This document shows, piece by piece, positions 4,901-20,570 of a stretch of DNA of 23,651 nt (positions within the stretch are counted from its first letter, which is position 1; the number at the start of each line of letters is the position of its first letter). The notes beneath the pieces were generated by a model that did no database searches, was not told the DNA's origin, and was given only the letters and a program-made list of their open reading frames with translations. The position numbers and the translations under genes were made by a program. This stretch comes from a virus, in the IMG/VR virus record IMGVR_UViG_3300025669_000196, positions 1 to 23,651 of that record; one strand, 5' to 3'.

Positions 4901-6295
4901 ATGTTCATTTTGCTTAACTGGTTTCCAAACTTCTTTCATCCATGGTGGAAGATGCTCATAGAGAAAAACAACATGGTCCCGCAGGAATCCCATCGCATCT
5001 TCATTACGACGGGAGACGATAAGAATTGTCTTATGCGGGTGGAACATGGCGAACCAGGTCGCGAATGCCCCAGAAATCTTTGAGATACCTGAATTATGAA
5101 CAACAGCACCATCAACAATATAGTTATTGTGTGGTGGGACTGATATATCATAAACTTTTGCAGTTTCACCTTTTTGGGTGATTCTTTTTATTTCGCCCTT
5201 TTTCCGATTAAAAAAGAAACCTTTGGTTATTTCTTTTCTAGGTTTTTTATTAAATATTCCAATATTTTCAACAAACAATTTAAAATCGGTGCCTCCATAT
5301 ATTCTTAATTTAGGCATCGATTGTTCTGTCGCCGGGTAAACCCTTGAATTAATACCAAATCGCGACAATAATTGTTTAATTTGATGCAACAAACGCATTG
5401 ATTCTTGACCAATGCCAACTTCATTGCAATTGCCGCCTGAATACCACCCATCGGCGGCAAACAATCTGTTTAGAAATAATGCTATAGAATCGTTTTCCCA
5501 GTCAAAAACAACATCTGGTATCTCTTTTTCTTCTCTAGTTTGCCCAGCTATTCCAAGGTCTTCAACCCATTTCCAAAATATCTTATTAGAATAATATATT
5601 CTATACGATGTTATTTTACCATCTTCATCCCTATTATGTGGTTTAATTGGTCTGCGTAAACCAAATAGCTTCGCAAAATGCTTTTGGTACTCTAACAAGT
5701 ATCTCCAACATGTGTTAGTAAAATGGCTTTGGTTACTGTTACCATAATAACCGTCACCAATCATATAACCTAATAATATTGCTTCACTTTCATTAGCAAC
5801 AAACCCTGTTCTTGGCCAATCACAGACTTCTAATAATCTATCATCGGTTGTTAAATTTTGTGCTTCTATTTCACCACCATATGTGAAATAATTATGATCT
5901 AGAGTCGCGACTGAGGTATGGCCAGTTTTTGATTTGACCTCACATACTTCCATTTCACCATTGTCGAAAGTCTCTTGAACTGGGACTATATCCAGCCTTT
6001 GGGTTTCATTATTGAATGAATATACCAGATCACCTTCTCGAATCAAATCAATTCGCCGGGGACCTGTTGGTGTCCATACCATTTGATCACCGCGAAAACA
6101 CTGTCGGCATTTTCTGAAAATGTTAAGCCTATGCTTACGGAAGCATGTGATAGCGTGTTTTTGATAGGTGAATGGCTCGAATGGTAGAACACCGGCTGAT
6201 GGGTGTTTCAGTCTACCAAAGTTGGCGAGGAACCACGACACGGATTGTTGCGATCTCCGGATGATTTCTTCTTGTTGTGGGCTCAGATTAGCCAT
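1976..6295 (-). CDS. terL: Terminase large subunit (T4 gp17-type) carrying two inteins
   Basis: ATPase-nuclease motor that pumps DNA into the prohead. The 1439-aa precursor contains inteins at residues 66-401 and 527-971; removing both leaves 658 aa, near T4 gp17 size. Extein motifs: Walker A region RKCRQ/SGISK (split by intein 1), Walker B LNIIDESAF (D496, E497), coupling motif IST/TNG (split by intein 2), and an RNaseH-fold nuclease with GVDIATGKGRDYSA, VIERNNGG and NFDDLVIA acidic residues. The start ATG overlaps the upstream HAD gene by 8 bases, with a purine-rich GAAGAGAAAA as ribosome binding site. The gene ends the minus-strand unit and converges on the CAP gene. The family assignment is firm. 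The intein boundaries come from junction motifs and extein continuity, which restores T4-like motifs at both joins. Confidence 0.95.
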   Translation of the reverse strand: MANLSPQQEEIIRRSQQSVSWFLANFGRLKHPSAGVLPFEPFTYQKHAITCFRKHRLNIFRKCRQCFRGDQMVWTPTGPRRIDLIREGDLVYSFNNETQRLDIVPVQETFDNGEMEVCEVKSKTGHTSVATLDHNYFTYGGEIEAQNLTTDDRLLEVCDWPRTGFVANESEAILLGYMIGDGYYGNSNQSHFTNTCWRYLLEYQKHFAKLFGLRRPIKPHNRDEDGKITSYRIYYSNKIFWKWVEDLGIAGQTREEKEIPDVVFDWENDSIALFLNRLFAADGWYSGGNCNEVGIGQESMRLLHQIKQLLSRFGINSRVYPATEQSMPKLRIYGGTDFKLFVENIGIFNKKPRKEITKGFFFNRKKGEIKRITQKGETAKVYDISVPPHNNYIVDGAVVHNSGISKISGAFATWFAMFHPHKTILIVSRRNEDAMGFLRDHVVFLYEHLPPWMKEVWKPVKQNEHEIIFPNGSRIQSLTSHPEVLRSNASSLNIIDESAFINGMDTLWAAGWPTLQHGGNVIVISTCVAPDTYIWTENGLCQIKDLEPDEYDGFDEGYYHADYNGPKVLGRDGLEKPTKFYKRPKEATKIITTRGRYKTEVSTTHRILSVKNTGEIDYTYSTDLKVGDYLPIERGRFIFGNNDKLDYVDDKTGWRIDTIDGELAYLLGVITAEGCLTSSSINVASGDLEIREKFLNNKFGWKFTIRKKQPYSMDCNNSAGVYRFLEWIGFERCKAPLKQIPKRLFQCSANVIRHYLMGLFDGDGFSRKRDGEVGLVSTSSELLVQVRQLLSNFGIICKEEWRGAYEKEFNLNNRSYVSQCLPHGRLLIRSGEARKYYERIGFGLARKQKNYINTRPSIEYIPHAVELVRKFRIEAQMSITDMNLCGIQNNVLFGRKNRKNQKLSKDLVLFFLSRVPNNKRHYGSYNILKQLANSDYYYDDIVEIMDSESELMDFTIPNGHSFIGCTFVHHQTNGIGNWYWSTWTDAEAGINGFNPIMVNWWDMDWKIEYKDPLSRQMKRIAPRDGIRKCVDRHEIDKFGPYWSPWLQEQYDALQEQGDAWKFDQEIMASFVGSGHTILTKQVLAQVQTTIKDPVQKVKGYQTYVHPVSGLVEDLSFDFTDPDEGLWIWETPVVASPTKRRGNVVIDHGTKAHAYVMGVDIATGKGRDYSAIEVFDVDTMEQVAEFMAHCLPRELVKYIDRIGRWYNSALAVIERNNGGDTLIDSLRFDTMYPRVWRKKEINDKPTAGNSKTQRALKVSQYGFSTSQASKPTLNKFLQDFISEKDGEGYKIFSTRLLKQFQTYVRKRDRTGRDTNKTEAEDGAGNFDDLVIACGLALIGTSDAFVVDAGNLIPVGSNGDFTSQTGPVILTDAGQVAQQRTFADQGGPSLMMPMKLAPDELPDVSAQRHIDAFTMELGGIPMSQGGPIVVPNKFYYDRKDG
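3383..4717 (-). mobile_element. TerL intein 2 (445 aa, LAGLIDADG endonuclease, Gln-terminal)
   Basis: Cis-splicing intein at precursor residues 527-971. It begins CVAPDTYIWTENG; block B is YKTEVSTTHRILSV. The LAGLIDADG helices are YLLGVITAEGCL (Glu in the acidic position) and YLMGLFDGDGFS. The C-terminus is HSFIGCTFVHHQ followed by +1 Thr, so the last intein residue is Gln rather than the usual Asn. Removal joins VIVIST to TNGIGN, restoring the T4 gp17-type coupling motif after Walker B. The endonuclease part closely resembles that of the sigma-factor intein at 9267-10553. Confidence 0.9.
5093..6100 (-). mobile_element. TerL intein 1 (336 aa, LAGLIDADG endonuclease, in Walker A)
   Basis: Cis-splicing intein at precursor residues 66-401. 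It starts with Cys (CFRGDQMVWTPTG, block A). Block B is the TSVATLDHNYFTY segment. The two LAGLIDADG helices are LLGYMIGDGYYG and FLNRLFAADGWY, each with an intact acidic residue, so the endonuclease may be active. Blocks F and G are VYDISVPPHNNYIVDG and AVVHN, followed by +1 Ser. Removal joins KCRQ to SGISKISG, rebuilding the terminase P-loop region. The ATPase should therefore be inactive until splicing occurs. Confidence 0.92.
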
Positions 6296-6659
6296 TAAGT
6301 TTTCTCTTCAATCGTGTTAATGCTTTACGCAACCCAGGCCATCCTACTGCTTTGTTGTCCCAGTATTCATCTGCCATGATTTTATCGCTTGTATCGGATG
6401 GTTGACTGGGATTTTTGTTGATATGGTCGAATGGAATATCGTATTCTTCAAACCAGTCTTTTATTCGTTTCTCATCGCCCCTACACGTGTTGATGACGAT
6501 TGTGATGGGGAGTTTTCTTACTTCCTTCATTACTTCTTGAGCGTCTTCCATCGGCTCAGGAATTTCATCTGTGTGGTGGTCTTGCTCTTTGGCTAAGGTG
6601 CCGTCGAGATCCACAGCCAGTGTGAATTTTCGGTCTTCGGCTATTGTTTGTAGTCGCAT
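6288..6659 (-). CDS. HAD-superfamily hydrolase/phosphatase
   Basis: A 123-aa single-domain HAD phosphatase. Motif I is AVDLDGTLA (nucleophile D17, acid/base D19). Motif II is VINTCRG (T58). A Lys/Asp motif III-IV region follows, with DKIMADEYWDNKA. The segment with FDHINKNP resembles small HAD proteins of the BT0820 type. Substrate unknown; phage HAD proteins of this size often act on nucleotides or nucleic-acid ends, but nothing here proves it. ATG overlaps the stop of the 253-aa gene by one base (TAATG) and the gene's own end overlaps terL by 8 bases, so the three are translationally coupled. An early-gene-like enzyme between the terminase genes is unusual for T4-type order. Confidence 0.85.
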   Translation of the reverse strand: MRLQTIAEDRKFTLAVDLDGTLAKEQDHHTDEIPEPMEDAQEVMKEVRKLPITIVINTCRGDEKRIKDWFEEYDIPFDHINKNPSQPSDTSDKIMADEYWDNKAVGWPGLRKALTRLKRKLNG

Positions 6660-7420
6660 TATACCAAGTCCTCATCGATCAATTCGGATAATCTACGTAT
6701 GGCTTCTTGTGGATTTTTCCACCAATCACCACCCATGCCAAATTCACCTGTGTCTTCTTCTTCATCGTCTTCTTCTGGTTCGACACGACCAATCACCTGT
6801 TGGTTATTCACATTGGTGCGACCAAATAATGATTGAAATCGACCAAAATCATCCCCTTGTAAAAAAATAGCAGCTTGTTCTTGTGGGACTTTCACCATTT
6901 TGACTGGTATTGTCACTAGGACTTGGCTTGCCATAGCATGTTGGCCACGCCCTTCTTTTTCAGACGCAACCACTGACCCTAAAGTCTTTGCTATAGAAGA
7001 CAAAATAAATATCAAATGCTCTCTACTATGATTATGCTTGTGGGCATGTGGGGTTTCTTCCCAATTTTCACTATCAAAGTCATAATAATCACCGGTATTA
7101 ATTATATGCCCGGCATCATACTGCGATATGACTTCAATTGCCTTCTCCAAGTTTTCATCACTTAATGTTTTAGCATTCCTCACATCTGTGTAATTCAAAT
7201 TCATTTCGAACGGTAAATCAATAGCTTCCGGAGCCTCAAACATATAGAGGTTCGCATCTGGTGACCCCGCCGCGATTTTTTTGCCCCAAGTGCAAAATTC
7301 AGTCCCATATTGTCGCAGGGCATCTGTCCCATCCCTAGTCGCCGGAAAAACAGCAACACTTTGCATGGGGTAATCAACCACTTGCTCTTCATCGGTATTC
7401 AAAAAAGTATAGTATCGCAT
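6659..7420 (-). CDS. Hypothetical protein, 253 aa, acidic C-terminal stretch
   Basis: I do not recognise this protein. It has no signal peptide or clear membrane segment. A His-rich patch (HAHKHNHSREH) sits near residue 125. A strongly acidic linker (EPEEDDEEEDTGEF) lies near residue 220, before a short C-terminal helix ending LSELIDEDLV. The start ATG has a good AAGGTG ribosome binding site 6 bases upstream. It is encoded between probable terS and the HAD/terL pair in one tightly overlapping unit, so a role in packaging or virion assembly is possible. This is inference from position only. Confidence 0.75.
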   Translation of the reverse strand: MRYYTFLNTDEEQVVDYPMQSVAVFPATRDGTDALRQYGTEFCTWGKKIAAGSPDANLYMFEAPEAIDLPFEMNLNYTDVRNAKTLSDENLEKAIEVISQYDAGHIINTGDYYDFDSENWEETPHAHKHNHSREHLIFILSSIAKTLGSVVASEKEGRGQHAMASQVLVTIPVKMVKVPQEQAAIFLQGDDFGRFQSLFGRTNVNNQQVIGRVEPEEDDEEEDTGEFGMGGDWWKNPQEAIRRLSELIDEDLV

Positions 7421-8870: not shown

Positions 8871-11102
8871 TTATTCTTCAAAATCAATTTGAAGTCTTCG
8901 ACGATCCTTAGGTTTCGCAATATTGCGATTGATTGGAGAATCGGTAAATTCAAAACTGCGGAGTTTGATAAGACGGATAAATCCTGTCACAATAGCTCGC
9001 GATAAACCTGTGCGTGCAACAAGCTTACCGATTGTACCATCATGCGGTCTATCATCATTAAAGAGCAACCATTCCAAAGCCTGAATAATCTGCATATGGT
9101 CTTCATTATAAGTGCAGATCTGCCGGGCTTCCTCTAAGAAACGAACCATCACATCACTAACAGGACGAGACTTGTTTCCAAGGTGGCTGACATATGATTG
9201 AGAATTCTTCCGGTCACGCCCCTCCTTCTTAATATAGGCCAAAATCACCGTACGGGCAATCTGGGAGTTGTGTACTACCATCCCGTTTGCCACATACGAA
9301 TGTGATGGCGTATCCACTGCAAAATCAAGCAATTCATTGCTACTGGTAACAATCTGTCTAATTGGCAACCATACTAGCTTATTTTTAGTAGTGGTGTGGT
9401 TAACTAATCTATCTTTTGCAAACGTATAATCAATATCGTCAGAATAATCGGCCCAAGCTTCTAACGCTTTCTGTGCAGTTTCTATTGTGCACTTATCGGC
9501 TTTTAACAAACGACGCAACGAATTATAATTTGAATGTCCTACACCATATTTTGCATATAAGGATCTAAATCGATCATTTAAACCATAAACAAAATCACGG
9601 ATATGTTTTAAATTATTGACATTAGATTGTTTCCGCCATATTCCAAAACTAATAAAAGTATAGAACATCTCTGAGTCGCGAGAAGATAATAAAAGCTGAG
9701 TCACCCCGGTTAATGTACTAGTATAATTCTTAAATTCTCTAGTAGTACGTTTATCGTGTGATATCTTGGATATAATTCCAAAATTTAACAGAATCATACG
9801 CAATTGGGCTAATAACACTTTAGAACTAGTGGTATATCCAACATTACCATTTCGTTGGTTAGAATGCCCATCTCCATCAAACATGCCTGACAACATTTTG
9901 GCTATCAATCGTCTTGGTAGGCATAGCAAACGTGGTGGTATCAACTTCGACTGAGCAGTAGAGTGCTCCCCAAAACCAAGTTGTTCCATTAATTCAATAA
10001 AGCGAACGTTGCATAGTGAAACTCGTTGGTATTCGGGTTCGTGGATAAAATTTAACCCCATACTATTATTGACTAATTTGTCGATTATCTCATCATCTAT
10101 ATTGTAAATCACCAATTTACCATACGAATAAGACCCCTCAGCGATATACAACCCTAAAAAGTATGCTAGTTCTTCGGTGATTTTAGGTGGGTTTACCCAT
10201 TTACCACGCTTAGTTAATTGTATATCATCTAGATCACAATATTCGCCAAATTGGTTTTGCCCACAGCGAATAGCCACCAAATCGCCGGTTGTGATAGTGT
10301 GTGCTTCTGGCCATCCAACACCTTCATGATTATGGATATATAACCTATGCTCTGGTGAACATTCCAATTCATATCCACATTCAGTGGTAAAACGAAGCGT
10401 GTCTGTATAATCTCTACATTTAACAGCTTCTACTAAAGCTAACCCATCTAACCCATCAACATGAACTGGTAATCCGGCCTCAAAATGATCTCTTACTTCA
10501 GAGGCAGCTAATGGCCCATGGCAGGTGGGAATCATGGTATCAGGAGAAACACACCACATGTTAAAAACTTTGGACATACCTCGATAAATGATTGTTTCAG
10601 AACCACCATAGAGATCTTGCACCGGCTCAATAATTGGCTCGTTTGCCAATTTTGCATCACAATGAGGGCAGAGTCGACCCCTGTGCATCTTCATCACTTC
10701 ATCCATGGTTTTGATACCATATTCACGTTCGCCAGGGATGTAGAGAAGAGATTTGGCGGGATGGTCCGGGCTGTAGCATGTTCGGCAATGTGGCCGTGCC
10801 CGGTACTTGTAAAGAGTTTTTTCAATTTGGACCCAGGCTGTTTGGAGAAGGTCGCCGAAAGCAGACTCTTCTTGGCCTGGATAGATTGTGTGAAGCCCTT
10901 GCTTCCGGATAATCTGGCGGATCAGTTCTGTCGCATTGGACATAATCTGATCGCGAAGCTCTATTCTAGTACACCCGGTCCAAATATACTTTGTGAGATC
11001 CCACTCGACTATTTCATTGATGAAGTAGAGCTTCCTCTTAGTAGATACAGTTTTAACATTTTGAGTACTGTCTTGTGCGGCATTTATTGTTGGTTTTGAC
11101 AT
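8871..11102 (-). CDS. gp55-like late sigma factor (sigma-70 region 2) with intein and zinc-ribbon insert
   Basis: The 743-aa precursor has an intein at residues 184-612; the joined exteins give 314 aa. The extein looks like a phage sigma factor: FGDLLQTAWVQIEKTLYKY (region 2.1-like) and, after splicing, SKVFNMW/SQIARTVILAYIKKEGRDRK (region 2.3-2.4-like, as in T4 gp55). Between these lies a probable zinc ribbon, C106/C109 with C145/C148, which T4 gp55 lacks. The C-terminal part has an HTH-like helix pair (GTIGKLVARTGLSRAIVTGF) and ends with a hydrophobic-acidic tail, LQIDFEE, reminiscent of the sliding-clamp-binding tail of gp55. Expected role: directing host RNA polymerase to late promoters. 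No clear Shine-Dalgarno precedes ATG 11102, only a TAAG tandem repeat. Sigma family is fairly likely; the gp55 equivalence is inference. Confidence 0.65.
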   Translation of the reverse strand: MSKPTINAAQDSTQNVKTVSTKRKLYFINEIVEWDLTKYIWTGCTRIELRDQIMSNATELIRQIIRKQGLHTIYPGQEESAFGDLLQTAWVQIEKTLYKYRARPHCRTCYSPDHPAKSLLYIPGEREYGIKTMDEVMKMHRGRLCPHCDAKLANEPIIEPVQDLYGGSETIIYRGMSKVFNMWCVSPDTMIPTCHGPLAASEVRDHFEAGLPVHVDGLDGLALVEAVKCRDYTDTLRFTTECGYELECSPEHRLYIHNHEGVGWPEAHTITTGDLVAIRCGQNQFGEYCDLDDIQLTKRGKWVNPPKITEELAYFLGLYIAEGSYSYGKLVIYNIDDEIIDKLVNNSMGLNFIHEPEYQRVSLCNVRFIELMEQLGFGEHSTAQSKLIPPRLLCLPRRLIAKMLSGMFDGDGHSNQRNGNVGYTTSSKVLLAQLRMILLNFGIISKISHDKRTTREFKNYTSTLTGVTQLLLSSRDSEMFYTFISFGIWRKQSNVNNLKHIRDFVYGLNDRFRSLYAKYGVGHSNYNSLRRLLKADKCTIETAQKALEAWADYSDDIDYTFAKDRLVNHTTTKNKLVWLPIRQIVTSSNELLDFAVDTPSHSYVANGMVVHNSQIARTVILAYIKKEGRDRKNSQSYVSHLGNKSRPVSDVMVRFLEEARQICTYNEDHMQIIQALEWLLFNDDRPHDGTIGKLVARTGLSRAIVTGFIRLIKLRSFEFTDSPINRNIAKPKDRRRLQIDFEE
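9267..10553 (-). mobile_element. Sigma-factor intein (429 aa, LAGLIDADG endonuclease)
   Basis: Cis intein inserted between Trp183 and Ser of the region-2 helix. It starts CVSPDTMIPTCHGP (block A), with block B near YELECSPEHRLYIHN. The LAGLIDADG helices are YFLGLYIAEGSYS and MLSGMFDGDGHS. Block F is LDFAVDTPSHSYVANG and block G is MVVHN, followed by +1 Ser. Removal rebuilds NMW-SQIARTV, a continuous sigma region 2 helix. The nuclease segment is clearly related to that of TerL intein 2: the IP-x-RL...GMFDGDG...LL-x-NFGII-x-K pattern and the FGIWRKQ/FGLARKQ pattern. Confidence 0.92.
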
Positions 11103-11133: not shown

Positions 11134-12984
11134 ATGAAAAAAACAAAGAAAAGCACAACACAAGTGTTTATCAGCAAAGCATTGGCCATGCATCATGATA
11201 AATATGACTATTCTAAAGTAGATTATGTTGGTAGTAAAAATTTAGTGGTTATAATATGTCATAAACACGGCGAATTCTTGCAAACGCCAAGCAACCATTT
11301 ACGATCATCAGGATGCAAAAAATGCCAAGAAGAAAAAACACGACAGATCACAGCAGCTAATTTCAAAAAAAGATCGACCCAAAAACATGGTGATCGCTAT
11401 TCTTACGAATTTGTAAAATATAAAGATTCTTTAACACCAGTTATAATCGGATGCCCACCACACGGTAAATTCAGTCAGACCCCACAACAACATCTTTTAG
11501 GAAGAGGATGTCCAAGTTGTGGTAGGTTAAAAATGGAAGAACATGCCCAAAAAACAAAGAAATTACACGCTTTTGACTTTATAAAAGCCGCAAATAATCG
11601 ACATAATGGAAAATATGATTATTCTGAATCGGTATATGCATCGGCCCACGAAAAAACAGTAATAAAGTGCCCCAAGCATGGTGGGTTTTTACAAACACCA
11701 TCGTCCCACCTAATTGGAAATGGTTGTCCAATATGTGCTAATGAGAATAAATCAACCCCATTAGCTTTATTTATTTTAGCAGCGAACAAAAAACATTATG
11801 ATAAATATGATTATTCTGAGATGAGTTATGTTAATGCTAATTCAAAAATCAAAATCAAGTGTCCAATCCACGGTCTATTTATGCAAAGAGCGTCGTCTCA
11901 TCTGGTCGGAAACGGTTGTCCAAAGTGCGCAATAGATAGAATGACGGATGATACAAATTCGTTTGTCGCAAAGGCTAAAAGAACACACGGTAAAAAGTAT
12001 GATTATTCTAAAACAACATACAAGCATTCATCGCTGAAAGTGGTAATAACATGCCCAACCCACGGTGAATTCAAACAGATAGCTAATAATCATACCAATG
12101 GAGGTGGTTGCCCAAAATGTTGGCAAAATATATCAAAGCAACAGTTAGAAGTTGCGAAATTTTGCGAAAGTTGCGGTATAACAACAGAGACTAACAATAG
12201 AAGTGTCATATCGCCATTGGAAATAGACATATGGATAGAAAGCAGAAGACTTGGTATAGAATATCACGGGGCTTATCATCATTCGGCAAACTCAATCGAA
12301 AGAGATAATTTTTTAAAATACCGAAATCGTGATAAGGCAAAAGCGGCTTGTGATAATAAGATAACATTGCTACAAATTTTTAGCAACGAATGGTATGATG
12401 AGAGAAAAGGGAAGATATGGCAATCCATGATTCGACACAGGCTGCAAAAATCTGTACCAACATATGCAAGAAAATTACAAATTGTTGAACTTAACACACA
12501 ATCGGAAAGAGAATTTTTTAATAATAATCATCTGCGTGGGTATTGCCCATCATCTATTTGCTATGCTTTGACAAATGGGGATATGATACTAAATGCTATG
12601 AGCTTTATCAAACGCAAGTCGTACTGGGAAATCCAAAGATTTGCAACGCACACTGGGTTTGCAGTAGTGGGAGGAAAAAGTAGATTATTCAAATGCTTTA
12701 AAACAAAACAACATCCCATTCGCGTTATAACATACGCTGATTTGAGATACTCTGACCCACAATGTTATGGTAATCTAGGCTTCATATATGAAAAATCAAC
12801 AGTACCAGGGTATCAATATATCAAGAATGGTGTGGTTTTGGCAAGGCAGAAATGCCAGAAGCATAAATTAAATGTTTTGTTGGCCGAGTATGATCTCAAT
12901 AAGACTGAACGTGAGAATATGTTCAATAATGGGTATCGTAGATTATGGGACGCAGGGCACTTGAAATTTGTCCTAGATTTCTAA
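11134..12984 (+). CDS. Free-standing EDxHD homing endonuclease with five DUF723-like zinc-finger repeats
   Basis: A 616-aa probable homing endonuclease encoded antisense to its neighbours. Residues about 20-330 hold five copies of a roughly 45-residue module with pattern KYDYS-x-V-x-Y ... CP-x-HG-x-F-x-Q ... HL-x-G-x-GCPKC; cysteines run C42/C61/C64 in the first to C307/C326/C329 in the last. These resemble DUF723 zinc-binding modules and probably read DNA. The nuclease core at about 361-420 has PLEIDIW, LGIEYHGAYHHS and TLLQIFSNEW, matching the EDxHD/Vsr-like fold. The C-terminus (TYADLRYSDP, GYQYI, RQKCQKHKL) is homologous to the enzyme at 46-1419. The gene starts 31 bases from the divergent sigma gene and ends 8 bases from the convergent helicase C-half, so it fits tightly into an intergenic site. 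The ribosome binding site is weak. Confidence 0.88.
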   Translation: MKKTKKSTTQVFISKALAMHHDKYDYSKVDYVGSKNLVVIICHKHGEFLQTPSNHLRSSGCKKCQEEKTRQITAANFKKRSTQKHGDRYSYEFVKYKDSLTPVIIGCPPHGKFSQTPQQHLLGRGCPSCGRLKMEEHAQKTKKLHAFDFIKAANNRHNGKYDYSESVYASAHEKTVIKCPKHGGFLQTPSSHLIGNGCPICANENKSTPLALFILAANKKHYDKYDYSEMSYVNANSKIKIKCPIHGLFMQRASSHLVGNGCPKCAIDRMTDDTNSFVAKAKRTHGKKYDYSKTTYKHSSLKVVITCPTHGEFKQIANNHTNGGGCPKCWQNISKQQLEVAKFCESCGITTETNNRSVISPLEIDIWIESRRLGIEYHGAYHHSANSIERDNFLKYRNRDKAKAACDNKITLLQIFSNEWYDERKGKIWQSMIRHRLQKSVPTYARKLQIVELNTQSEREFFNNNHLRGYCPSSICYALTNGDMILNAMSFIKRKSYWEIQRFATHTGFAVVGGKSRLFKCFKTKQHPIRVITYADLRYSDPQCYGNLGFIYEKSTVPGYQYIKNGVVLARQKCQKHKLNVLLAEYDLNKTERENMFNNGYRRLWDAGHLKFVLDF

Positions 12985-12992
12985 TTCAAGTA

Positions 12993-14336
12993 CTACCGTT
13001 CTCGCTTTGGACGTTCGAGGAGTTCTTTTCTAATATGGAATCTGCTTTTGACAAGTTGGGCACCATCTATACTCCCACCGGGAAAAATCACGGTGGTCTT
13101 ATACCCAGCGGCGATCATGGCTTTCAACCGCAATCGTGAGTGCTCGTAGAGGTACTTGTTACTGCGAAAAAAGAAATCAAAAATCCGGCTCCGCCCACGT
13201 GAATTATGCCGAACCGCTCGGCCAACCTTTTGGATGAAATCAGATCTCAACTTCCCCCCAGTAGCAACAATCAAATTCTCACAACCGCCATCAAGGTCAA
13301 GACCTCTATTAATAATCTTACCACCAATAAGTACGTCAAACTCTCTGCGTTCGAACTCACGCAATCTTTCATTACGCTGACGTTTTGGTGTTTTACCAAA
13401 AATGAAATTGGCAGAAAGACCAACATCTCTAATAGAAGCCTCTAAATTATAGCCCAATCGTTCCCTATCAACAAGAGCTAACGTACCGTCTCCTTGATAC
13501 TTCTTACAAAGACCAGCAATCAACTTGTGAAAATCTTTATTGTCCACAAGCCACTCATCATAGGCAATATCATAAGCAGACTGGTCGTGAATACTCCCCT
13601 CAAGACCAAAAGCCAACATATAATAGTCAACAGGAATAATTCTACCAATTCGTTCTAATTCCTGCCGTGATTCGGTGGCAACAATCGAGCCTAAATGTTC
13701 CTGTATCACCAATCTCTCAACCGGCTTAGCATCATCAAAGATGGTCCCGGAAAAACCATACCGACGGCGCCCCTTGAACCAATGGCGGAACATATTCTTG
13801 AACGGGTCGGAAGTAGCTTTATCCGCTTCGTCAACAAGAAGCATTTCGGCTTCTTTGATATACCGTTGTAAAGACTTAGCATTTTTCCGCCGTGTCTTAT
13901 ATCCTTTAAATGATACTTCCCATCGTTCAAGCTTCTTCTCGTAGGTCTTGTCAGTATCTGCCTCAGTTCTTGAGGGAACCTTCGGCGGATTGGATGGTAT
14001 TGTGAGTGATTGAATAGTACCAACCACAATCCGCTGACCATTCGGCTTTTCACCAGCATAGAACAATCCAACCTCATCAATCACATCACGAAGTTCAAGC
14101 CGTTGCTTAAGCTGTTCTACCACAATCCGCTGATCGGCAACAACCACTGTGGGACAATTAATTGCTTTGCATATCCCAGCAATAATTTCTGTATTATGAG
14201 ACAATATACCATTTGTCCAATATGAGTGATCAAATTGCTCCTCTATTGAAGGCCCATGCTCGCTAGCCACTTGCAAATCATAGCAATTTTCGGCAGACGA
14301 TTCTAAATTTATAGACTTTATTTTAGAGAATTGCAT
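12993..14336 (-). CDS. UvsW-like SF2 helicase, C-terminal fragment with N-terminal C-intein
   Basis: A 447-aa protein. Residues 1-48 are the C-terminal half of a split intein (CYDLQV, HSYWTNGILSHN, then +1 Thr). Residues 49-447 are the rest of an SF2 helicase: TEII completing motif I, GTIQSL (motif Ib region), VDEADK (motif II), FSGTI (motif III), and VLIGGKIINRGLDLDG with QKVGRAVRHNSRG (motifs V and VI). Trans-splicing to the 134 extein residues of the fragment at 15624-16325 would give a 533-aa helicase, near T4 UvsW size (about 503). UvsW-type enzymes unwind branched DNA and R-loops. The gene has its own ATG, overlaps the nuclease gene by 19 bases and has GGA 6 bases upstream. Without splicing the P-loop Thr and Lys are on separate chains. 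Confidence 0.88.
   Translation of the reverse strand: MQFSKIKSINLESSAENCYDLQVASEHGPSIEEQFDHSYWTNGILSHNTEIIAGICKAINCPTVVVADQRIVVEQLKQRLELRDVIDEVGLFYAGEKPNGQRIVVGTIQSLTIPSNPPKVPSRTEADTDKTYEKKLERWEVSFKGYKTRRKNAKSLQRYIKEAEMLLVDEADKATSDPFKNMFRHWFKGRRRYGFSGTIFDDAKPVERLVIQEHLGSIVATESRQELERIGRIIPVDYYMLAFGLEGSIHDQSAYDIAYDEWLVDNKDFHKLIAGLCKKYQGDGTLALVDRERLGYNLEASIRDVGLSANFIFGKTPKRQRNERLREFERREFDVLIGGKIINRGLDLDGGCENLIVATGGKLRSDFIQKVGRAVRHNSRGRSRIFDFFFRSNKYLYEHSRLRLKAMIAAGYKTTVIFPGGSIDGAQLVKSRFHIRKELLERPKRER
14193..14336 (-). mobile_element. Split intein, C-terminal half (48 aa)
   Basis: Opens with its own ATG. Block F is ENCYDLQVASEHG and block G is HSYWTNGILSHN, followed by +1 Thr of the helicase Walker A motif. 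It pairs with the N-half at 15627-15923. At 48 residues it is a little longer than typical natural C-inteins. Confidence 0.9.
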
Positions 14337-15631
14337 AATTGATCCAAATGGTTGCGCAAGTTAGTGATTGTAGATGCGCCAACAATTACAAAATAAACAT
14401 AAGAAGCATATTTATTATCAGCCGCAAATTGATTGCCCACTTTTTTCTTTATATCATCAATATCGTTTGCAGCAGTATAAGTGCTTTTGATTTCTATAAT
14501 ATGTGGTGTGGATTGACCAACCAACGATAATTCAAAATCTGGAAACATATATCGCACACAATCACTAGCAATATATCTTATACTTGGTCCACGGGACAAA
14601 TTTGAAATTCTCAAATCATCGTGGCATACTTTTATAAAATATTGCTCATATCTAGATTGATAAAACATTTTACCAAACCTACTATCAGCATAACCTTGGA
14701 TACGCTTTGCACATTCAAAAATGGCTCTCACTTTTTCAGGAGTGTCATGGTTTCTGTGCCATGTCTTCAGCCTAGCCGCTTTAATCTCTTCTATTTCTTC
14801 GTCGCTTTTCGTAGCCATTGTTTGTTGAAATTTTTCAACCACGGCTGGTGCTGATGGATAATTCCCATTTACTTTTTTTATTTCCAGCCCACGACGAGCA
14901 TGTTCCTTCAAATCAACATGCCTCATTAATTCCTCAGATTGTAAAGTATTCTCTACACCATACCTCTTAAAATTGGTACGTTTAATCTTCTCCTTAATAT
15001 CCTCATGAAGCATCGGATCGCCATTTTTTTCGGCCCAAGCACCAATACCCAGTTTCCAATTCTCCTTACCAAGCTTAGAATATTTCTCCTTATTCTCAGC
15101 CATCATCTTACTACTAGCATCACGTCGCAAACAATTCGCACACAACAAAGACCTATTCTTTCTAAATCCAGGCAATGGTCTTGTTGTTGTCGCCCCACAT
15201 TCACAAACCCAATGACAATTGATAATTGATGATTGCTTCCAATTACCATTTTTCCTTTTCGACTTGCCATATTTTCTCGTAAAAGTAATCCGATACAACT
15301 CCGGAAAATGTGGTTCTGGCACCTCATCCAAACTTATATCAATAGTATCGGTCCTAAGCTCACTTTCCAACCTTTTAGGCTGTAAGCAATTTCGACATAA
15401 TAATTGTGAATTTTTGCGAAATTTAGACAACACTCTAATATTGCGTTTACCACACTCCACACAATCAAAAGCACATTGTATAGTAAACATCTGACATGGA
15501 TTACGTTTAGACGACCTGGCGATGTGATACTTCTTTTGTATTTCAACCCTGTCGATATTATCGATGTTTGATACATCATGCCCAGCATCATCTGGTGATA
15601 TTATGATAACATCTGTGCGAAAATCAGCCAT
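14318..15631 (-). CDS. Zinc-ribbon PD-(D/E)xK homing endonuclease nested between the helicase halves
   Basis: A 437-aa free-standing nuclease. The N-terminal part has two related zinc-ribbon modules: C53/C57/C60 with C79/C82, and C139/C143/C145 with C164/C167. Both contain an FRKN-x-LLC-x-NC segment. A phage homing-enzyme motif follows at about residue 220 (FKRYGVENTLQSEE). The C-terminal domain has a PD-(D/E)xK core: E329 in SRYEQYF, P364-D365 in FPDFEL, and E380-x-K382 in HIIEIKS. It is not LAGLIDADG and not the EDxHD type of its plus-strand neighbours. ATG overlaps the end of the N-half gene by 8 bases with GAGGTGG upstream; its end overlaps the C-half start by 19. Expected role: cutting intein-less alleles so the split-intein cassette is copied in. 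Confidence 0.85.
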   Translation of the reverse strand: MADFRTDVIIISPDDAGHDVSNIDNIDRVEIQKKYHIARSSKRNPCQMFTIQCAFDCVECGKRNIRVLSKFRKNSQLLCRNCLQPKRLESELRTDTIDISLDEVPEPHFPELYRITFTRKYGKSKRKNGNWKQSSIINCHWVCECGATTTRPLPGFRKNRSLLCANCLRRDASSKMMAENKEKYSKLGKENWKLGIGAWAEKNGDPMLHEDIKEKIKRTNFKRYGVENTLQSEELMRHVDLKEHARRGLEIKKVNGNYPSAPAVVEKFQQTMATKSDEEIEEIKAARLKTWHRNHDTPEKVRAIFECAKRIQGYADSRFGKMFYQSRYEQYFIKVCHDDLRISNLSRGPSIRYIASDCVRYMFPDFELSLVGQSTPHIIEIKSTYTAANDIDDIKKKVGNQFAADNKYASYVYFVIVGASTITNLRNHLDQLCNSLK

Positions 15632-16325
15632 CTATCGCCACCTCATCATCAACCATCAAGTCTTTGAGCATAACCCACCCGCGCTTAGTAAACACCCTAT
15701 GTTCTGGCACTCCTCTAAGCCAATGGCCAGACTCTAATTCTAATTTCATTATCTGCCGCTTATCAGTCTTATACAAAGCAGTAATATCCACCAAACCACC
15801 GGGATATTTCACACGTAATCCATCAATAGATCTATATTCTTCATCCTTAAACCCGTCAAAAAGAGTGCCAATCTCAATTTCGCCGAGTCCTTCTATGTTT
15901 ATTTTTGACTCAAATGTGCAGCACTTACCGCCGCCCGTGGGGACATCTACTAAACCGCACTCAACTTTACAAGCTGCCTGAATGCCGCGAACTTGATGCG
16001 GATCGAGTATAATCCCCGGCAAAAAATCTGGCTTGATATCTTCCGGCTTCAATTTTTCATATTCCCACTTTAGCCTAGTGTCCCTAATCACCAATGGTAT
16101 ACCATGTTCTTTACACACACCACGCAGCATACTTAGCAAAGGCCGGGCCATTCGCTTTTTAGCACGATTGTACTTGCGATAGATACCATCCCAATTACCA
16201 CGTTGGGCGGGGTCGACATAATGCCCAGGATGGGAAACGCTAAACTGAACCCATAGGATTTCTTCCTCAGCGTCTGTAATATTATCAAACCAAATCCACT
16301 GATTATCTTCTATAGTTGCTCTCAT
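15624..16325 (-). CDS. UvsW-like SF2 helicase, N-terminal fragment with C-terminal N-intein
   Basis: A 233-aa protein. Residues 1-134 are the helicase N-terminus: an accessory domain, then a Q-motif-like LDPHQVRGIQAACK, then motif I as far as VPTGGGK. Residues 135-233 are the N-terminal half of a split intein. The chain stops after AIDG, exactly where the nuclease gene begins. The fragment lacks all helicase motifs after the Walker A lysine, so it must be joined to the 12993-14336 product to work. No Shine-Dalgarno is visible before ATG 16325; a 12-bp hairpin lies just upstream. N-half and C-half are in the same frame relative to each other, while the intervening nuclease is in another frame. 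Confidence 0.87.
   Translation of the reverse strand: MRATIEDNQWIWFDNITDAEEEILWVQFSVSHPGHYVDPAQRGNWDGIYRKYNRAKKRMARPLLSMLRGVCKEHGIPLVIRDTRLKWEYEKLKPEDIKPDFLPGIILDPHQVRGIQAACKVECGLVDVPTGGGKCCTFESKINIEGLGEIEIGTLFDGFKDEEYRSIDGLRVKYPGGLVDITALYKTDKRQIMKLELESGHWLRGVPEHRVFTKRGWVMLKDLMVDDEVAIDG
15627..15923 (-). mobile_element. Split intein, N-terminal half (99 aa)
   Basis: Begins with Cys directly after the Walker A Lys (GGGK/CCTFESK), with block A continuing INIEGLGEIEIGTL. Block B is the GHWLRGVPEHRVFTKRGW segment, matching the G-x-x-x-x-x-T/VPxHR pattern. It ends WVMLKDLMVDDEVAIDG. The size (99 aa) is typical for naturally split N-inteins. No endonuclease domain is attached. Confidence 0.9.
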
Positions 16326-16689: not shown

Positions 16690-19600
16690 CTACACAATTA
16701 CGCATTTATCCGTATCGCAGTACATCGCACCTTCCGCCTCTTGGCCAAAGAAGTCAGTATAATCTGCCGGTTTCAGAGTAGCATTATAATCATCGACTTC
16801 TTTAACAGTACAAGGTTCATACGGTGCCTGAGCATAACCATGATTGGATAAAGGCAAGAAACTAATCCCCTTAAGTTGATCCTCGAACGTCCCAATAATA
16901 CGTGCAATATCACCAGCTTCCTCTGGGTGGAACTTGATAGTACACGAAACTTGGTTATCGGCCCAATACCGCTGGTAATCAACAACATTAACCATCTGCT
17001 CCCACATCGAAACCTCGGAAACAGGTCTCACACGGTCATCACTGATAGCAAATTTGACAACAACAGTACGATCCTGATCCTTAACATCCGGCTCGATGTG
17101 GAACCCAGCCTCTTCCAAAAGCGGAATCAACGAACTATCCTTGGCAATACGTGCTCGCCGCCAATACGTGCAGGCTTCCGGGTGGTGAATACCAGGCGTG
17201 GTACCAACAACCAACGAAATCGTGCCACTCGGCTTAACAGAAGTCACCTTAATAGACTTCTGGATGCACAACCATTCAGAATAAAGCTCCCAGCGTCGGA
17301 TTTCGTGGTATCCAGCGTCGCAGAAATCTTTTAGAACCGTTCGACGGCCAAATTTCTTGAATGCTTGCACAATACCACTTTGTGACAAACCAATTCGCCT
17401 ATTACGAAGCGTAACCTGATTCGTCCGTGGGTTATGTGTTGGAAGCAACGTTACCGTCTTTGCGTAAAGATAGGCGAACTTAAGAGTTCGCATGTAATCA
17501 TCAGCATCCTCGTGGTTGGCTGGGAATGTTTCAACCAGATTGCATTGATAGGTTAATGAATTCCCAAAAACACCCATATGATTATCTGGTTCGTCAAAAC
17601 AAAATGTATCATGCGTGCCACCCAACTCCTCGACACGCACAATTTTTTGTTTTTTAGCCATATCAATCATTTTATTTGGGTACCGTGGATTAGACCGCAA
17701 ACGAGAACCTATTTTCACAGCCACTTTATATCTGGTCGGGATCTCACCAGCTTCAAAACTTGATATTTGGACATACCACAAATCATACTTGCGTACACCC
17801 TTGTTTGTTACTTGTCCCTTTGGATGGCATAGGTTCACAGATGCATGGTTGATACCAACCCTTCGCAATAAAAGCTGAAGACTACGCATATGTTCTTCAG
17901 TTCCATAGATCCTATATCCATCGGTATGCGGTTGCCTAACAAGGCTTCCATCTGACTCAATCCAACCAGCAATAAATTCCAAGGCACTCTCTTGGTCAAA
18001 TTCAAACACCCATTGTGGGATTGGAGATTCAATATCTCTCAATTCTTTGGTTTGCTCAACTGTCACAAGATTTTTAAGAGAGTATCTTCGATAAGGGTCG
18101 GCATAGCCCTCTTTGATTTGTGGTTTATAAGGTATACCACCAAGCTGTAAGGCTTCCATCTTTTCGTCAGACCCACAAACAACGGCCATTGACCGTGTAT
18201 ATTTAGGACGATCAACAAGATCCAGAAACCCGTCGCCAGTAATATAACCCATTTCAAATGCATTCGGCTCAAATCGACCAGAAATCATACCCAACGAATA
18301 TGGGTGTGACTTACTACCTGAGACCAGATCTTGAGTCTCAACTCGTCGGTACACCCGTTTTCCAGATGGTTTCACCAACCAACCATGATTAGATGTAGTG
18401 TCTAAGTATGAACCATCTGACATGTGAACTCTAAACAATTTCCTATTAGAGCCAGTCATCCTAGGTTCAACTTTTGACCAATCATCACCGTTCCAAATTT
18501 CAATCGATTTTCCAACCAATTCTGCAATTGGCTGGACTCCATCACGCATCTGAAGCATCGTACTACCGGCCACACACAACTCGTATGACTCAAGCGATTG
18601 TTCAAGGCACGGATTGCCACCTTTGACACGACCATCAATACCAGGTTGCCGACCATCGATCATGCGGCCATAGTCACGCATGTTATCAAGCCACATCAGA
18701 CCGGGCTCACCATTAGAGGCGATATGTTGGCCGATGGTCGTATAATCCATGCCGACACTGGCGAAAATCGAATTGTTTGATGCCCAGCGATGATGATTCA
18801 GAGAATTCCAAGTATTAATCGCCGGAACCAACCGCTCTTGGGGGATGACCAATTCGCCATCTTCTGTGAAATCCGCTAGTGATGCTTTGTTTCGGTCTTG
18901 GGCGAAAAGATTGGTGGTGATCTCGGAGAATTTGCCGTAGTCTTGTTCTTCAAGCGTCTCCAGCGGATTCTTCATTGAGCAGTATTTCTCATCGTCGGGT
19001 TCGCCAAAGGCGATCTCGGCGGTACGGCGGACATTGCCAGCCACGACGCAACGACCAATATAATTCATCAGGTCAGTGATATCGACACTGGTTAGTGCTT
19101 TGCCAACACAACGATCAAGATGCTCCCTGATTAACTCATGTAATTCAAGGAGAATTGATGGACCTGAGGCTTTGCCACCAAACCCTTTAATAATACTGCC
19201 GGGTTTTCTGATGCTGCTATAATCGAATTGGATATTACCAATTTGGGGCTTTTTGGTATAGGACCAGATGAGCACTCGCATCGAGTCAACCCAACCTTCA
19301 CGGGAGTCGTCGATTAAATAGCGGTTGTGCTTCTTATCTGGTGCTTTAATTTGGATTTTCCCGGCACCTTTTGTGTCAAACCCAACCCCAACTCCCAACA
19401 TAGACATGTCCATCAGGAAGCAAAATGGCTCGGCGGGATCAGCTTCAATTTCGTCGTCGGTGGAGACAAAGCCACAGTTGCAAAGAGCCGCACTTCCACG
19501 TTCCCACATGAACTTCGTACCCATCATCCACATGCCGCGTCCGGGCGGGAGAAATTTGAATTCCCACATGCGTTGGAACATTTCCTGGGCGGATATTTGT

Positions 19601-19920
19601 GCCTTATCATAGTCCCACGGGATGTGGATCTTTCGGCAATGGCGGCGTTGGATCTCGTAGCAACCTTCAACTACCCGTCGCAGGGTGTCAAGAAAGCTTT
19701 CTTTGGTACCGTCTTCTTTCAGGCGAGAATATGTGCGATAGAAGACAAATTCGCCCATACCATTAAACCCGAAATTGGGTTTTTTGTTGGCATACGTAGA
19801 TAAAAACAGGGCATCCAATTTGAACTGAATATCGCCGTTAGTATGCCGTATATGACCAAAGTAAGTCTCTGTGATACTTTCTTCGTGTGTATCGTTCGCT
19901 TTTGCTAGTTCTATAGACAC
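16690..19920 (-). CDS. nrdJ: Class II (adenosylcobalamin-dependent) ribonucleoside-triphosphate reductase with intein
   Basis: Reduces ribonucleotides to deoxyribonucleotides for phage DNA synthesis. The 1076-aa precursor contains an intein at residues 449-792; the spliced enzyme is 732 aa, matching the monomeric Lactobacillus leichmannii type (about 739). Key residues counted from GTG 19920: C149 in LCNCGF (redox partner), N436/C438/E440 in NPCLEQ (radical site), the +1 Cys after the intein (11 residues after C438 in the mature chain, as C408/C419 in the known enzyme), and C1068/C1073 in the terminal CDTDKC shuttle. I chose GTG 19920 because GGAGAG lies 4 bases upstream; a TTG at 19932 is possible. 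It overlaps the upstream gene by 10 bases. Leu after the radical Cys (NPCLEQ) replaces the usual small residue. Confidence 0.93.
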   Translation of the reverse strand: MSIELAKANDTHEESITETYFGHIRHTNGDIQFKLDALFLSTYANKKPNFGFNGMGEFVFYRTYSRLKEDGTKESFLDTLRRVVEGCYEIQRRHCRKIHIPWDYDKAQISAQEMFQRMWEFKFLPPGRGMWMMGTKFMWERGSAALCNCGFVSTDDEIEADPAEPFCFLMDMSMLGVGVGFDTKGAGKIQIKAPDKKHNRYLIDDSREGWVDSMRVLIWSYTKKPQIGNIQFDYSSIRKPGSIIKGFGGKASGPSILLELHELIREHLDRCVGKALTSVDITDLMNYIGRCVVAGNVRRTAEIAFGEPDDEKYCSMKNPLETLEEQDYGKFSEITTNLFAQDRNKASLADFTEDGELVIPQERLVPAINTWNSLNHHRWASNNSIFASVGMDYTTIGQHIASNGEPGLMWLDNMRDYGRMIDGRQPGIDGRVKGGNPCLEQSLESYELCVAGSTMLQMRDGVQPIAELVGKSIEIWNGDDWSKVEPRMTGSNRKLFRVHMSDGSYLDTTSNHGWLVKPSGKRVYRRVETQDLVSGSKSHPYSLGMISGRFEPNAFEMGYITGDGFLDLVDRPKYTRSMAVVCGSDEKMEALQLGGIPYKPQIKEGYADPYRRYSLKNLVTVEQTKELRDIESPIPQWVFEFDQESALEFIAGWIESDGSLVRQPHTDGYRIYGTEEHMRSLQLLLRRVGINHASVNLCHPKGQVTNKGVRKYDLWYVQISSFEAGEIPTRYKVAVKIGSRLRSNPRYPNKMIDMAKKQKIVRVEELGGTHDTFCFDEPDNHMGVFGNSLTYQCNLVETFPANHEDADDYMRTLKFAYLYAKTVTLLPTHNPRTNQVTLRNRRIGLSQSGIVQAFKKFGRRTVLKDFCDAGYHEIRRWELYSEWLCIQKSIKVTSVKPSGTISLVVGTTPGIHHPEACTYWRRARIAKDSSLIPLLEEAGFHIEPDVKDQDRTVVVKFAISDDRVRPVSEVSMWEQMVNVVDYQRYWADNQVSCTIKFHPEEAGDIARIIGTFEDQLKGISFLPLSNHGYAQAPYEPCTVKEVDDYNATLKPADYTDFFGQEAEGAMYCDTDKCVIV
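17545..18576 (-). mobile_element. NrdJ intein (344 aa, LAGLIDADG endonuclease, Tyr-Gln terminus)
   Basis: Starts CVAGSTMLQMRDGVQPI (block A), with block B near YLDTTSNHGWLV. The LAGLIDADG helices are FEMGYITGDGFLD and FIAGWIESDGSLV. The end is CFDEPDNHMGVFGNSLTYQ followed by +1 Cys. The terminal pair is Tyr-Gln in place of the common His-Asn. Removal joins SLESYEL to CNLVETFP, the standard class II active-site sequence. Confidence 0.92.
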
Positions 19921-20570
19921 AATTCTCTCCAATCGGGGCCTAGAATCCGTTTTATGTTGATAATATTATCTGTGTCCTCAGTAAACTCAGATCGCAGCAT
20001 ATATAATATGGTCGCTCTCGGGAGAATTTCCCTTTCCTCTGGGTGGGTCTTAGCAAGACGTGCTAAGGCTCTCCCACACGGCTTCGACAATGCTAAGTAC
20101 AGCCTAGAAATGCGGGAAGCCTGGACCCATTGTGTAAGATTGCAGAGTTCGTCGGGATCCCGACGACAGAGAAGTGTTTCAAACAAATTACTTTGTGATC
20201 GTTCTGTTAACCAATTGTGAATGTGCTCAATCGAATCAGTGCATTGTTTGTGGGTATTCGCCTGTTTCTGCAGTTCATCATAGCATATCTGCAAAAGATT
20301 AGACTGATGCAAAGCGGCCAATCCTTTCCGTAAGACGCCCGCTTCCTTGCAGTGTCGCACAGCAATACTAATAAATTGCTTGGCTAAATCTTCATCAAAA
20401 TCCCACTCTGAAATTTTCAGAGTTAATGAGCGAACATAACGCCATTGGTAAGTCTTGACTGGGTCTGTATTAGAAGGGAACTTCAGTCTGATGCCTTGTT
20501 GTAGATAGGCCGCAGAACACCAGTCCCAAACCGTCATGATTCTATCATCTGATAGCTCTAGAATGTTCAT
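19911..20570 (-). CDS. Hypothetical protein, 219 aa, helical
   Basis: I do not recognise this protein. It appears all-helical, with several Cys and Trp residues scattered. There is no signal peptide, membrane segment or catalytic motif I can name. I place the start at ATG 20570 (MNILELSDD), because the upstream extension to 20702 is antisense to the well-supported gene at 20596-20922. The ribosome binding site is weak (AAGAA). ATG 20537 (MTVWDW) is an alternative. The gene overlaps nrdJ by 10 bases and is divergent from the plus-strand gene with a 25-base gap. Confidence 0.65.
   Translation of the reverse strand: MNILELSDDRIMTVWDWCSAAYLQQGIRLKFPSNTDPVKTYQWRYVRSLTLKISEWDFDEDLAKQFISIAVRHCKEAGVLRKGLAALHQSNLLQICYDELQKQANTHKQCTDSIEHIHNWLTERSQSNLFETLLCRRDPDELCNLTQWVQASRISRLYLALSKPCGRALARLAKTHPEEREILPRATILYMLRSEFTEDTDNIINIKRILGPDWRELCL
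19925..19930 (-). promoter_or_regulatory. Ribosome binding site deciding the nrdJ start
   Basis: GGAGAG on the minus strand, 4 bases before GTG 19920. It lies inside the last codons of the upstream 219-aa gene, so translation of the two is probably coupled. Confidence 0.6.

What the first reader, a model, noticed from the sequence alone, without database searches (positions are those of the whole stretch)
12993..16325. Fractured UvsW-like helicase: split intein in the P-loop with a nested nuclease gene
Seen: an N-half ending GGGK + N-intein, a separate nuclease gene, then C-intein + Thr and helicase motifs II-VI, all minus strand with overlaps of 8 and 19 bases. Joined exteins give GGGKT and a 533-aa helicase. 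Known: natural split inteins with a free-standing endonuclease between the gene halves were described from marine metagenomes (gp41, NrdA/NrdJ, IMPDH hosts). I do not recall a UvsW-type host, so this may be a new host gene and insertion site. The helicase would be inactive until trans-splicing.
Basis: partly seen in the sequence, partly recalled or inferred. Interest (0 to 1): 0.9.

Follow-up and report, generated by a model that had tools for sequence, protein, structure and literature searches.

The report
Split-intein phage helicase with nested nuclease
A phage DNA helicase gene is broken in two by a protein element that should glue the two protein halves back together, with a DNA-cutting enzyme gene sitting in the break; the arrangement is real, but the same kind of break already exists, apparently unannotated, in the UvsW helicase of cultured T4-like phages.

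Summary
In detail: three minus-strand genes with 8- and 19-base overlaps. They encode a helicase N-half plus a 99-residue N-intein, a 437-residue nuclease, and a 48-residue C-intein plus the helicase C-half. Joining the exteins gives a 533-residue helicase (GGGK|T) that aligns without a gap to dozens of uninterrupted orthologs. A colinear 12.8-kb relative (L004) is intein-free. Both halves are under strong purifying selection. I read it as a functional natural split intein (trans-splicing, P-loop site) with a nested homing-type nuclease. Splicing and cutting are inferred, not shown.

Two novelty claims fail. Host and site are not new: Enterococcus phages (one annotated "UvsW-like") and relative L089 carry contiguous inteins at the same GGGK/GSGK|T site. 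Fractured UvsW itself is not new: Salmonella phages S16 and CF-SP2 and Proteus phage PM2 have N-half + N-intein / nuclease / C-intein + C-half, at motif II.

New: a second fractured-UvsW-type site (motif I) and a different nuclease (DUF7487, PD-(D/E)XK-like). Close relatives have Gly or Ser at +1, while the split allele has Thr, a residue splicing can use. Verdict: new member of a known kind, moderately interesting, testable in cultured phages.

The parts
15624..16325 (-). N-half gene: helicase N-terminal part up to the P-loop lysine, fused to the N-intein (233 aa)
   Evidence: ORF; TIGR01445 29.2 bits at residues 135-213; extein aligns to 60+ relatives
15924..16325 (-). N-extein, 134 codons, ends ...DVPTGGGK
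15627..15923 (-). N-intein, 99 codons; Cys1 codon 15921-15923, block B His codon 15699-15701
   Evidence: PDB relative NrdJ-1
15624..15631 (-). 8-nt overlap of N-half stop and nuclease start (ATGGCTGA)
   Evidence: sequence
14318..15631 (-). Free-standing nuclease gene, 437 aa: two Cys-rich zinc-finger-like regions, a KRYGVEN DNA-binding-type repeat, C-terminal PD-(D/E)XK-like core; Pfam DUF7487
   Evidence: Pfam PF24308 E 4e-10; homologs L163-L168 with invariant E329, P364-D365, E380, K382
14477..14650 (-). Putative catalytic core of the nuclease (residues 328-385: YE...YMFPDF...IIEIKSTY)
   Evidence: alignment A4
14318..14336 (-). 19-nt overlap of nuclease 3' end and C-half start
12993..14336 (-). 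C-half gene: C-intein fused to helicase motifs Ia-VI (447 aa)
   Evidence: ORF; Helicase_C E 3e-9; phrog_16 E 6e-40
14193..14336 (-). C-intein, 48 codons; His47 codon 14196-14198, Asn48 codon 14193-14195
   Evidence: TIGR01443 15.2 bits versus cut-off 15.6
14190..14192 (-). +1 Thr codon (ACA); Gly or Ser in every relative of at least 61% identity
12996..14192 (-). C-extein, 399 codons

Best explanation
This is a 'fractured gene': a phage SF2 (UvsW-like, PHROG 16) helicase gene split at Walker A by a natural split intein of the canonical class-1 type, with a free-standing nuclease gene in the break. The three overlapping genes are probably made from one transcript with coupled translation (inferred). 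The N-half ends GGGK + N-intein and the C-half begins with the C-intein + Thr. The intein halves associate, Cys1, His47-Asn48 and Thr+1 carry out trans-splicing, and the intact 533-aa helicase with a complete P-loop results; each half alone lacks part of the ATP site (splicing is inferred from anatomy, the +1 residue and selection). The nuclease most likely cuts intein-free alleles of the helicase gene, so that repair copies intein and nuclease together into them (homing, inferred). Shown here: anatomy, empty site in relatives, conservation of both halves, nuclease family by motif. Not shown: splicing, cleavage, mobility.
For: Both halves carry intein splicing motifs at the right ends, and the joined intein resembles NrdJ-1, RecA and DnaB inteins. 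The exteins join without gain or loss onto uninterrupted orthologs. L004 (12.8 kb) is colinear from a baseplate gene to the terminase at about 70-90% aa identity with no intein. Selection: window vs L004 gives pN 0.11 / pS 0.86 (N-half) and 0.089 / 0.73 (C-half), no faster than between intact relatives, so both halves still make a working protein. The window sits (97/92 and 100/99 support) in a clade with Gly or Ser at +1 but has Thr, a splicing nucleophile; the nearest Gly codons (GGC, GGA) differ from ACA by 2-3 bases. The nuclease is absent from nine relatives' records, has lower GC (0.37 vs 0.44-0.46 in exteins), and its homologs are free-standing phage ORFs with a PD-(D/E)XK signature. 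The same architecture occurs in cultured phages S16, CF-SP2 and PM2.
Against: No experiment. Only one allele of this split intein was found, so selection on the intein itself cannot be tested. The C-intein model score falls just under its cut-off (15.2 vs 15.6), block B has Val instead of the usual Thr (VPEH), and the C-intein has an insertion of about 10 residues relative to others. The window helicase also differs from its clade at motif II (DEAD, not DECD) and after motif III (SGTI, not SGTP), so Thr+1 is not the only unusual motif residue. The AlphaFold model of the nuclease failed (pLDDT 38), so its fold rests on sequence motifs.
Confidence: 0.85

Rival explanations
1. One contiguous intein with an internal nuclease domain, made to look split by two sequencing or assembly errors.
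For: N-half and C-half are in the same reading frame overall (coordinates), so two compensating indels would restore a single ORF; homologous helicases have contiguous inteins at this site.
Against: The indels would have to fall within windows of 8 nt and about 45 nt. The nuclease has a start codon directly after an in-frame stop, with an SD-like GAGG upstream. DUF7487 relatives are free-standing, not intein-embedded LAGLIDADG domains. The same three-gene layout with similar overlaps occurs in several independently sequenced T4-type phages.
Confidence: 0.05
2. The intein is decayed or splices poorly and the helicase works as a non-covalent two-subunit enzyme, with the intein halves as a docking module.
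For: Block B Thr is replaced by Val; the C-intein motif is slightly below cut-off and carries an insertion.
Against: Cys1, block B His, His-Asn and Thr+1 are all present, and +1 is a nucleophile where the clade has Gly/Ser. An intein between the Walker A lysine and threonine would disrupt the ATP site unless removed.
Confidence: 0.07
3. A dead remnant: the helicase gene has been inactivated by a mobile element insertion and is decaying.
For: Only one intein-bearing allele of this kind was found.
Against: Both halves have pN/pS near 0.12-0.13 against the closest intact relative, no excess over intact-intact pairs; no stops or frameshifts in 533 codons.
Confidence: 0.02
4. RNA-level splicing (group I or II intron) rather than protein splicing.
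For: Phage genes often carry endonuclease-containing introns (PMC2988022, PMC12350094).
Against: No Rfam match in 14000-16100 even at E<=1, and none in the window at gathering scores. The coding sequence on both sides of the nuclease is intein-like and in frame with the exteins.
Confidence: 0.01

Closest known systems
Fractured uvsW of Salmonella phages S16 (gp114/gp114.1/gp115), CF-SP2 and Proteus phage PM2
   Same: UvsW-type helicase; N-half + about 100-aa N-intein, free-standing nuclease ORF, C-intein + C-half; overlapping genes; exteins rejoin to a helicase
   Different: Site is motif II (NDE|C), not the P-loop; +1 is Cys; the nuclease is a 291-aa NUMOD3 / TnsA-like protein, only marginally related to the window's (hhalign E 2e-4, probability 45%, over the catalytic core). 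In the records I read it is annotated only as split helicase genes plus 'hypothetical protein'
Contiguous P-loop inteins of Enterococcus Herelleviridae helicases (phiM1EF22, iF6, ECP3) and viral contig L089
   Same: Homologous helicase, same GGGK/GSGK|T insertion point, Cys1 and HN|T junctions
   Different: One ORF; 425- and 290-aa inteins with an internal LAGLIDADG-like region (phiM1EF22 matches endonuclease family phrog_4645); no separate nuclease gene
Marine 'fractured genes' of Dassa et al. 2009 (gp41, NrdA, NrdJ, IMPDH)
   Same: Split intein with a free-standing endonuclease gene between the host-gene halves (own knowledge and the paper's title; full text not held)
   Different: Other host genes; their nuclease family could not be compared here
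NrdJ-1 split intein (PDB 8ubs)
   Same: Closest solved sequence relative of the joined intein (E 3e-4)
   Different: Host gene, about 10-residue insertion in the window's C-intein, Val for Thr in block B
DUF7487 free-standing phage nucleases (e.g. Vibrio phage Va1 'HJR family nuclease', L163-L168)
   Same: YGVEN repeats, PD...E-x-K core, in several also a zinc-finger-like N-terminus
   Different: Those found lie between ordinary genes, not inside a split intein

Membership tests
Natural split intein, class 1 | N-terminal Cys1 with N-intein motif | tested here: met
   TIGR01445 29.2 bits, cut-off 24.5, starts at Cys135
Natural split intein, class 1 | Block B T-x-x-H | tested here: inconclusive
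   His present (15699-15701); Thr replaced by Val: VPEH
Natural split intein, class 1 | C-terminal His-Asn and +1 C/S/T | tested here: met
   ...SHN|T; but TIGR01443 15.2 bits versus cut-off 15.6, just short
Natural split intein, class 1 | Trans-splicing activity | not testable with these tools
   needs co-expression
Fractured gene (split intein + nested free-standing endonuclease) | Host halves on two genes rejoin to an uninterrupted homolog | tested here: met
Fractured gene (split intein + nested free-standing endonuclease) | Endonuclease ORF with its own start between the halves | tested here: met
Fractured gene (split intein + nested free-standing endonuclease) | Endonuclease of the family described by Dassa et al. 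| not tested
   paper not held; family here is DUF7487
PD-(D/E)XK / DUF7487 phage nuclease | Pfam DUF7487 above gathering score | tested here: met
   40.5 bits, cut-off 27
PD-(D/E)XK / DUF7487 phage nuclease | PD...E-x-K core and fold | tested here: inconclusive
   motif invariant in the six-sequence alignment; structure model failed, pLDDT 38
UvsW helicase proper | UvsW_N domain (Pfam PF21241) | tested here: not met
   no hit for the N-half; S16 gp114 hits at E 1e-42
Phage SF2 helicase of PHROG 16 (UvsW-like in the broad sense) | Profile match and SF2 motifs I, II, III, VI | tested here: met
   E 6e-40; GGGKT, DEAD, SGT, QKVGRAVR

The most novel reading that the evidence does not exclude
A split intein with a DUF7487 nuclease, a nuclease family not previously tied to split inteins as far as I know, invaded a P-loop whose clade carries Gly at the Walker A Thr position. 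In doing so it brought its own Thr codon, so that invasion restored a canonical Walker A and made the helicase depend on trans-splicing.
Probability: 0.35. Interest if true: 0.55.

Novelty: new member of a known kind. Interest (0 to 1): 0.42.

Why it matters
Natural split inteins are few, and each new one is a candidate tool for protein ligation. Two fractured UvsW-type helicases at different motifs, with different nucleases, suggest that gene fracture has arisen repeatedly in the same replication/repair gene. The motif II version sits in cultured phages, so trans-splicing during infection can be checked directly. The empty-site relatives give a ready homing target for testing the nuclease.

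Tried and rejected
Nuclease relatives by close search in viral contigs and genome contigs: none; a three-sequence profile found six. Structure of the nuclease: unusable (pLDDT 38), so no fold search was run. Another split allele at this site: none among about 60 orthologs, nor among 52 PTGGGK|C matches, which were contiguous P-loop inteins of other helicases or unrelated/chance matches. RNA intron: no Rfam match. DNA-level relatives of the window among phages: none. Literature link of UvsW to a split intein: none found in the open library; Dassa 2009 is not held. My first idea that the motif II intein of L013 had changed the host residue was wrong: DECD is native in that clade.

Full report
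What is there. The window is a 23,651-base IMG/VR virus record. On the minus strand, 16325-12993, three genes overlap by 8 and 19 bases. The first is 134 residues of helicase ending VPTGGGK plus 99 residues beginning CCTFESK. The second is a 437-residue nuclease. The third is 48 residues ending ILSHN, then Thr and helicase motifs Ia-VI. Joined exteins give 533 residues with GGGKT. The N-intein model scores above its cut-off and starts at the first Cys; the C-intein model falls just below. As a joined 147-residue intein the best solved match is the NrdJ-1 intein. The nuclease frame is closed by a stop directly before its ATG, and the C-half frame 8 codons before its ATG, so only two well-placed indels could make this one ORF.

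Empty-site comparison. Searches of viral contigs brought in about 60 orthologs. Apart from one distant ortholog, L089, they continue straight through the site: extein residue 134 is followed by residue 135 with no gap. The best comparison is L004: 12.8 kb, colinear with the window from the baseplate gene through small genes, the B12-type ribonucleotide reductase, the helicase and ORF 8871 to the terminase, mostly at 70-90% aa identity, with none of the window's inteins. This fits insertion of an element into an intact gene, not an assembly artefact.

Still functional. Against L004 the N-half has pS 0.86 / pN 0.11 and the C-half 0.73 / 0.089; pairs of intact relatives look the same. The tree places the window inside a well-supported clade whose other members have Gly (one Ser) after GGGK; the window has Thr. 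An intein of this class needs Cys, Ser or Thr there. The nearest Gly codons (GGC, GGA) are 2-3 bases from ACA. This fits either co-conversion of the donor's flank or selection for splicing. A caution: Thr is common in more distant orthologs, and the window is also unusual at motif II (DEAD, clade DECD) and after motif III (SGTI, clade SGTP), so the argument is supportive, not decisive.

The nuclease. Pfam DUF7487 (E 4e-10). Six homologs in viral contigs are free-standing ORFs with YGVEN repeats and a C-terminal core in which E329, P364-D365, E380 and K382 are invariant; several also have zinc-finger-like N-termini. A Vibrio phage homolog is annotated 'HJR family nuclease' next to the major capsid gene. 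None of those inspected lies inside a split intein. An AlphaFold model was too poor to use. The gene was not found in nine relatives' records, some of which are fragments, and it has lower GC than the exteins. A homing role is inferred.

Is it new? Not as host and site. Enterococcus phages have a contiguous intein at the same GGGK|T of a homologous helicase, in one record annotated 'UvsW-like'. L089 has another (GSGK|T), and other phage helicases carry many contiguous PTGGGK|C inteins. Not as a fractured UvsW either. Searching with a motif II N-intein query led to Salmonella phages S16 and CF-SP2 and Proteus phage PM2, where uvsW is N-half + N-intein (NDE|C...), a 291-residue NUMOD3 / TnsA-like nuclease, and C-intein (...NGALAHN|C) + C-half, with overlaps of 10 and 38-65 bases as annotated. 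S16 gp114 hits UvsW_N (E 1e-42) and intein_Nterm (E 5e-11); gp115 hits intein_Cterm. The records call these split helicase genes and a hypothetical protein, and I found no open-access paper naming them as an intein. The window's split intein is a relative of S16's (28% over 98 residues), but its nuclease differs. PHROG 16259, whose profile ends like an N-intein, may be the family of these motif II N-halves (inference).

How it most likely works. The three genes are co-expressed (inferred from overlaps); intein halves pair and trans-splice through Cys1, His-Asn and Thr+1 (inferred from residues); the P-loop is completed only in the spliced product; the nuclease spreads the whole segment into intact alleles (inferred). 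Confidence is 0.85 for the split-intein reading and lower, about 0.7, for homing.

Verdict. Real and well supported; a new member of a known kind, with a new site for a split UvsW-type intein and a different nuclease family. The most useful by-product is that cultured phages S16, CF-SP2 and PM2 carry the sister arrangement, which makes the question testable now.

Noticed in passing
L156 (S16, NC_020416) 3932-6658; L157 (CF-SP2) 3962-6691; L158 (PM2, NC_055727) 3938-6670: Apparently unannotated fractured uvsW: split intein at motif II with a nested NUMOD3/TnsA-like nuclease in cultured T4-type phages.
   Followed up: yes
window 1976-6295, 8871-11102, 16690-19932: The window carries four more inteins, all contiguous: two in the terminase large subunit, one in ORF 8871 and one in the ribonucleotide reductase. 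With the split intein and two free-standing homing-type nuclease genes (46-1419, 11134-12984), roughly 40% of the window is mobile-element sequence; relative L004 has none of the five inteins.
   Followed up: partly
window 1976-6295 (residue 971) and 16690-19932 (residue 796): The second terminase intein (VHHQ|T) and the reductase intein (LTYQ|C) end in Gln rather than Asn; the latter also lacks the penultimate His.
   Followed up: no
L031 / L013 and L055: Helicase orthologs with two contiguous inteins in one gene, at motif II (VDE|C) and motif III (GF|S); L080 and L083 have one at motif II. Motifs I, II and III of this helicase are all intein sites.
   Followed up: partly
window C-half, motif II (VDEADK) and motif III (SGTIF): The window alone in its close clade has Ala for the Cys at VDE|C, the +1 nucleophile of the motif II intein of L013/L055, and Ile for Pro after SGT next to the motif III site; possibly loss of the target of other inteins.
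   Followed up: no
A2 alignment and L004-L068: Most close helicase relatives have GGGKG or GSGKG: Gly in place of the Walker A Ser/Thr that normally binds the nucleotide's magnesium.
   Followed up: partly
window 11134-12984 (+): A second, unrelated homing-type endonuclease gene (PHROG 559) ends 8 bases from the 3' end of the helicase C-half on the opposite strand.
   Followed up: no
L149 (ON840061) 1-1497: A terminase 'complete cds' that ends just after an N-intein (CLTGDTLV...), so it may be an unannotated split-intein half; lowest E-value (5e-4) among phage-collection hits to the window's N-intein.
   Followed up: no
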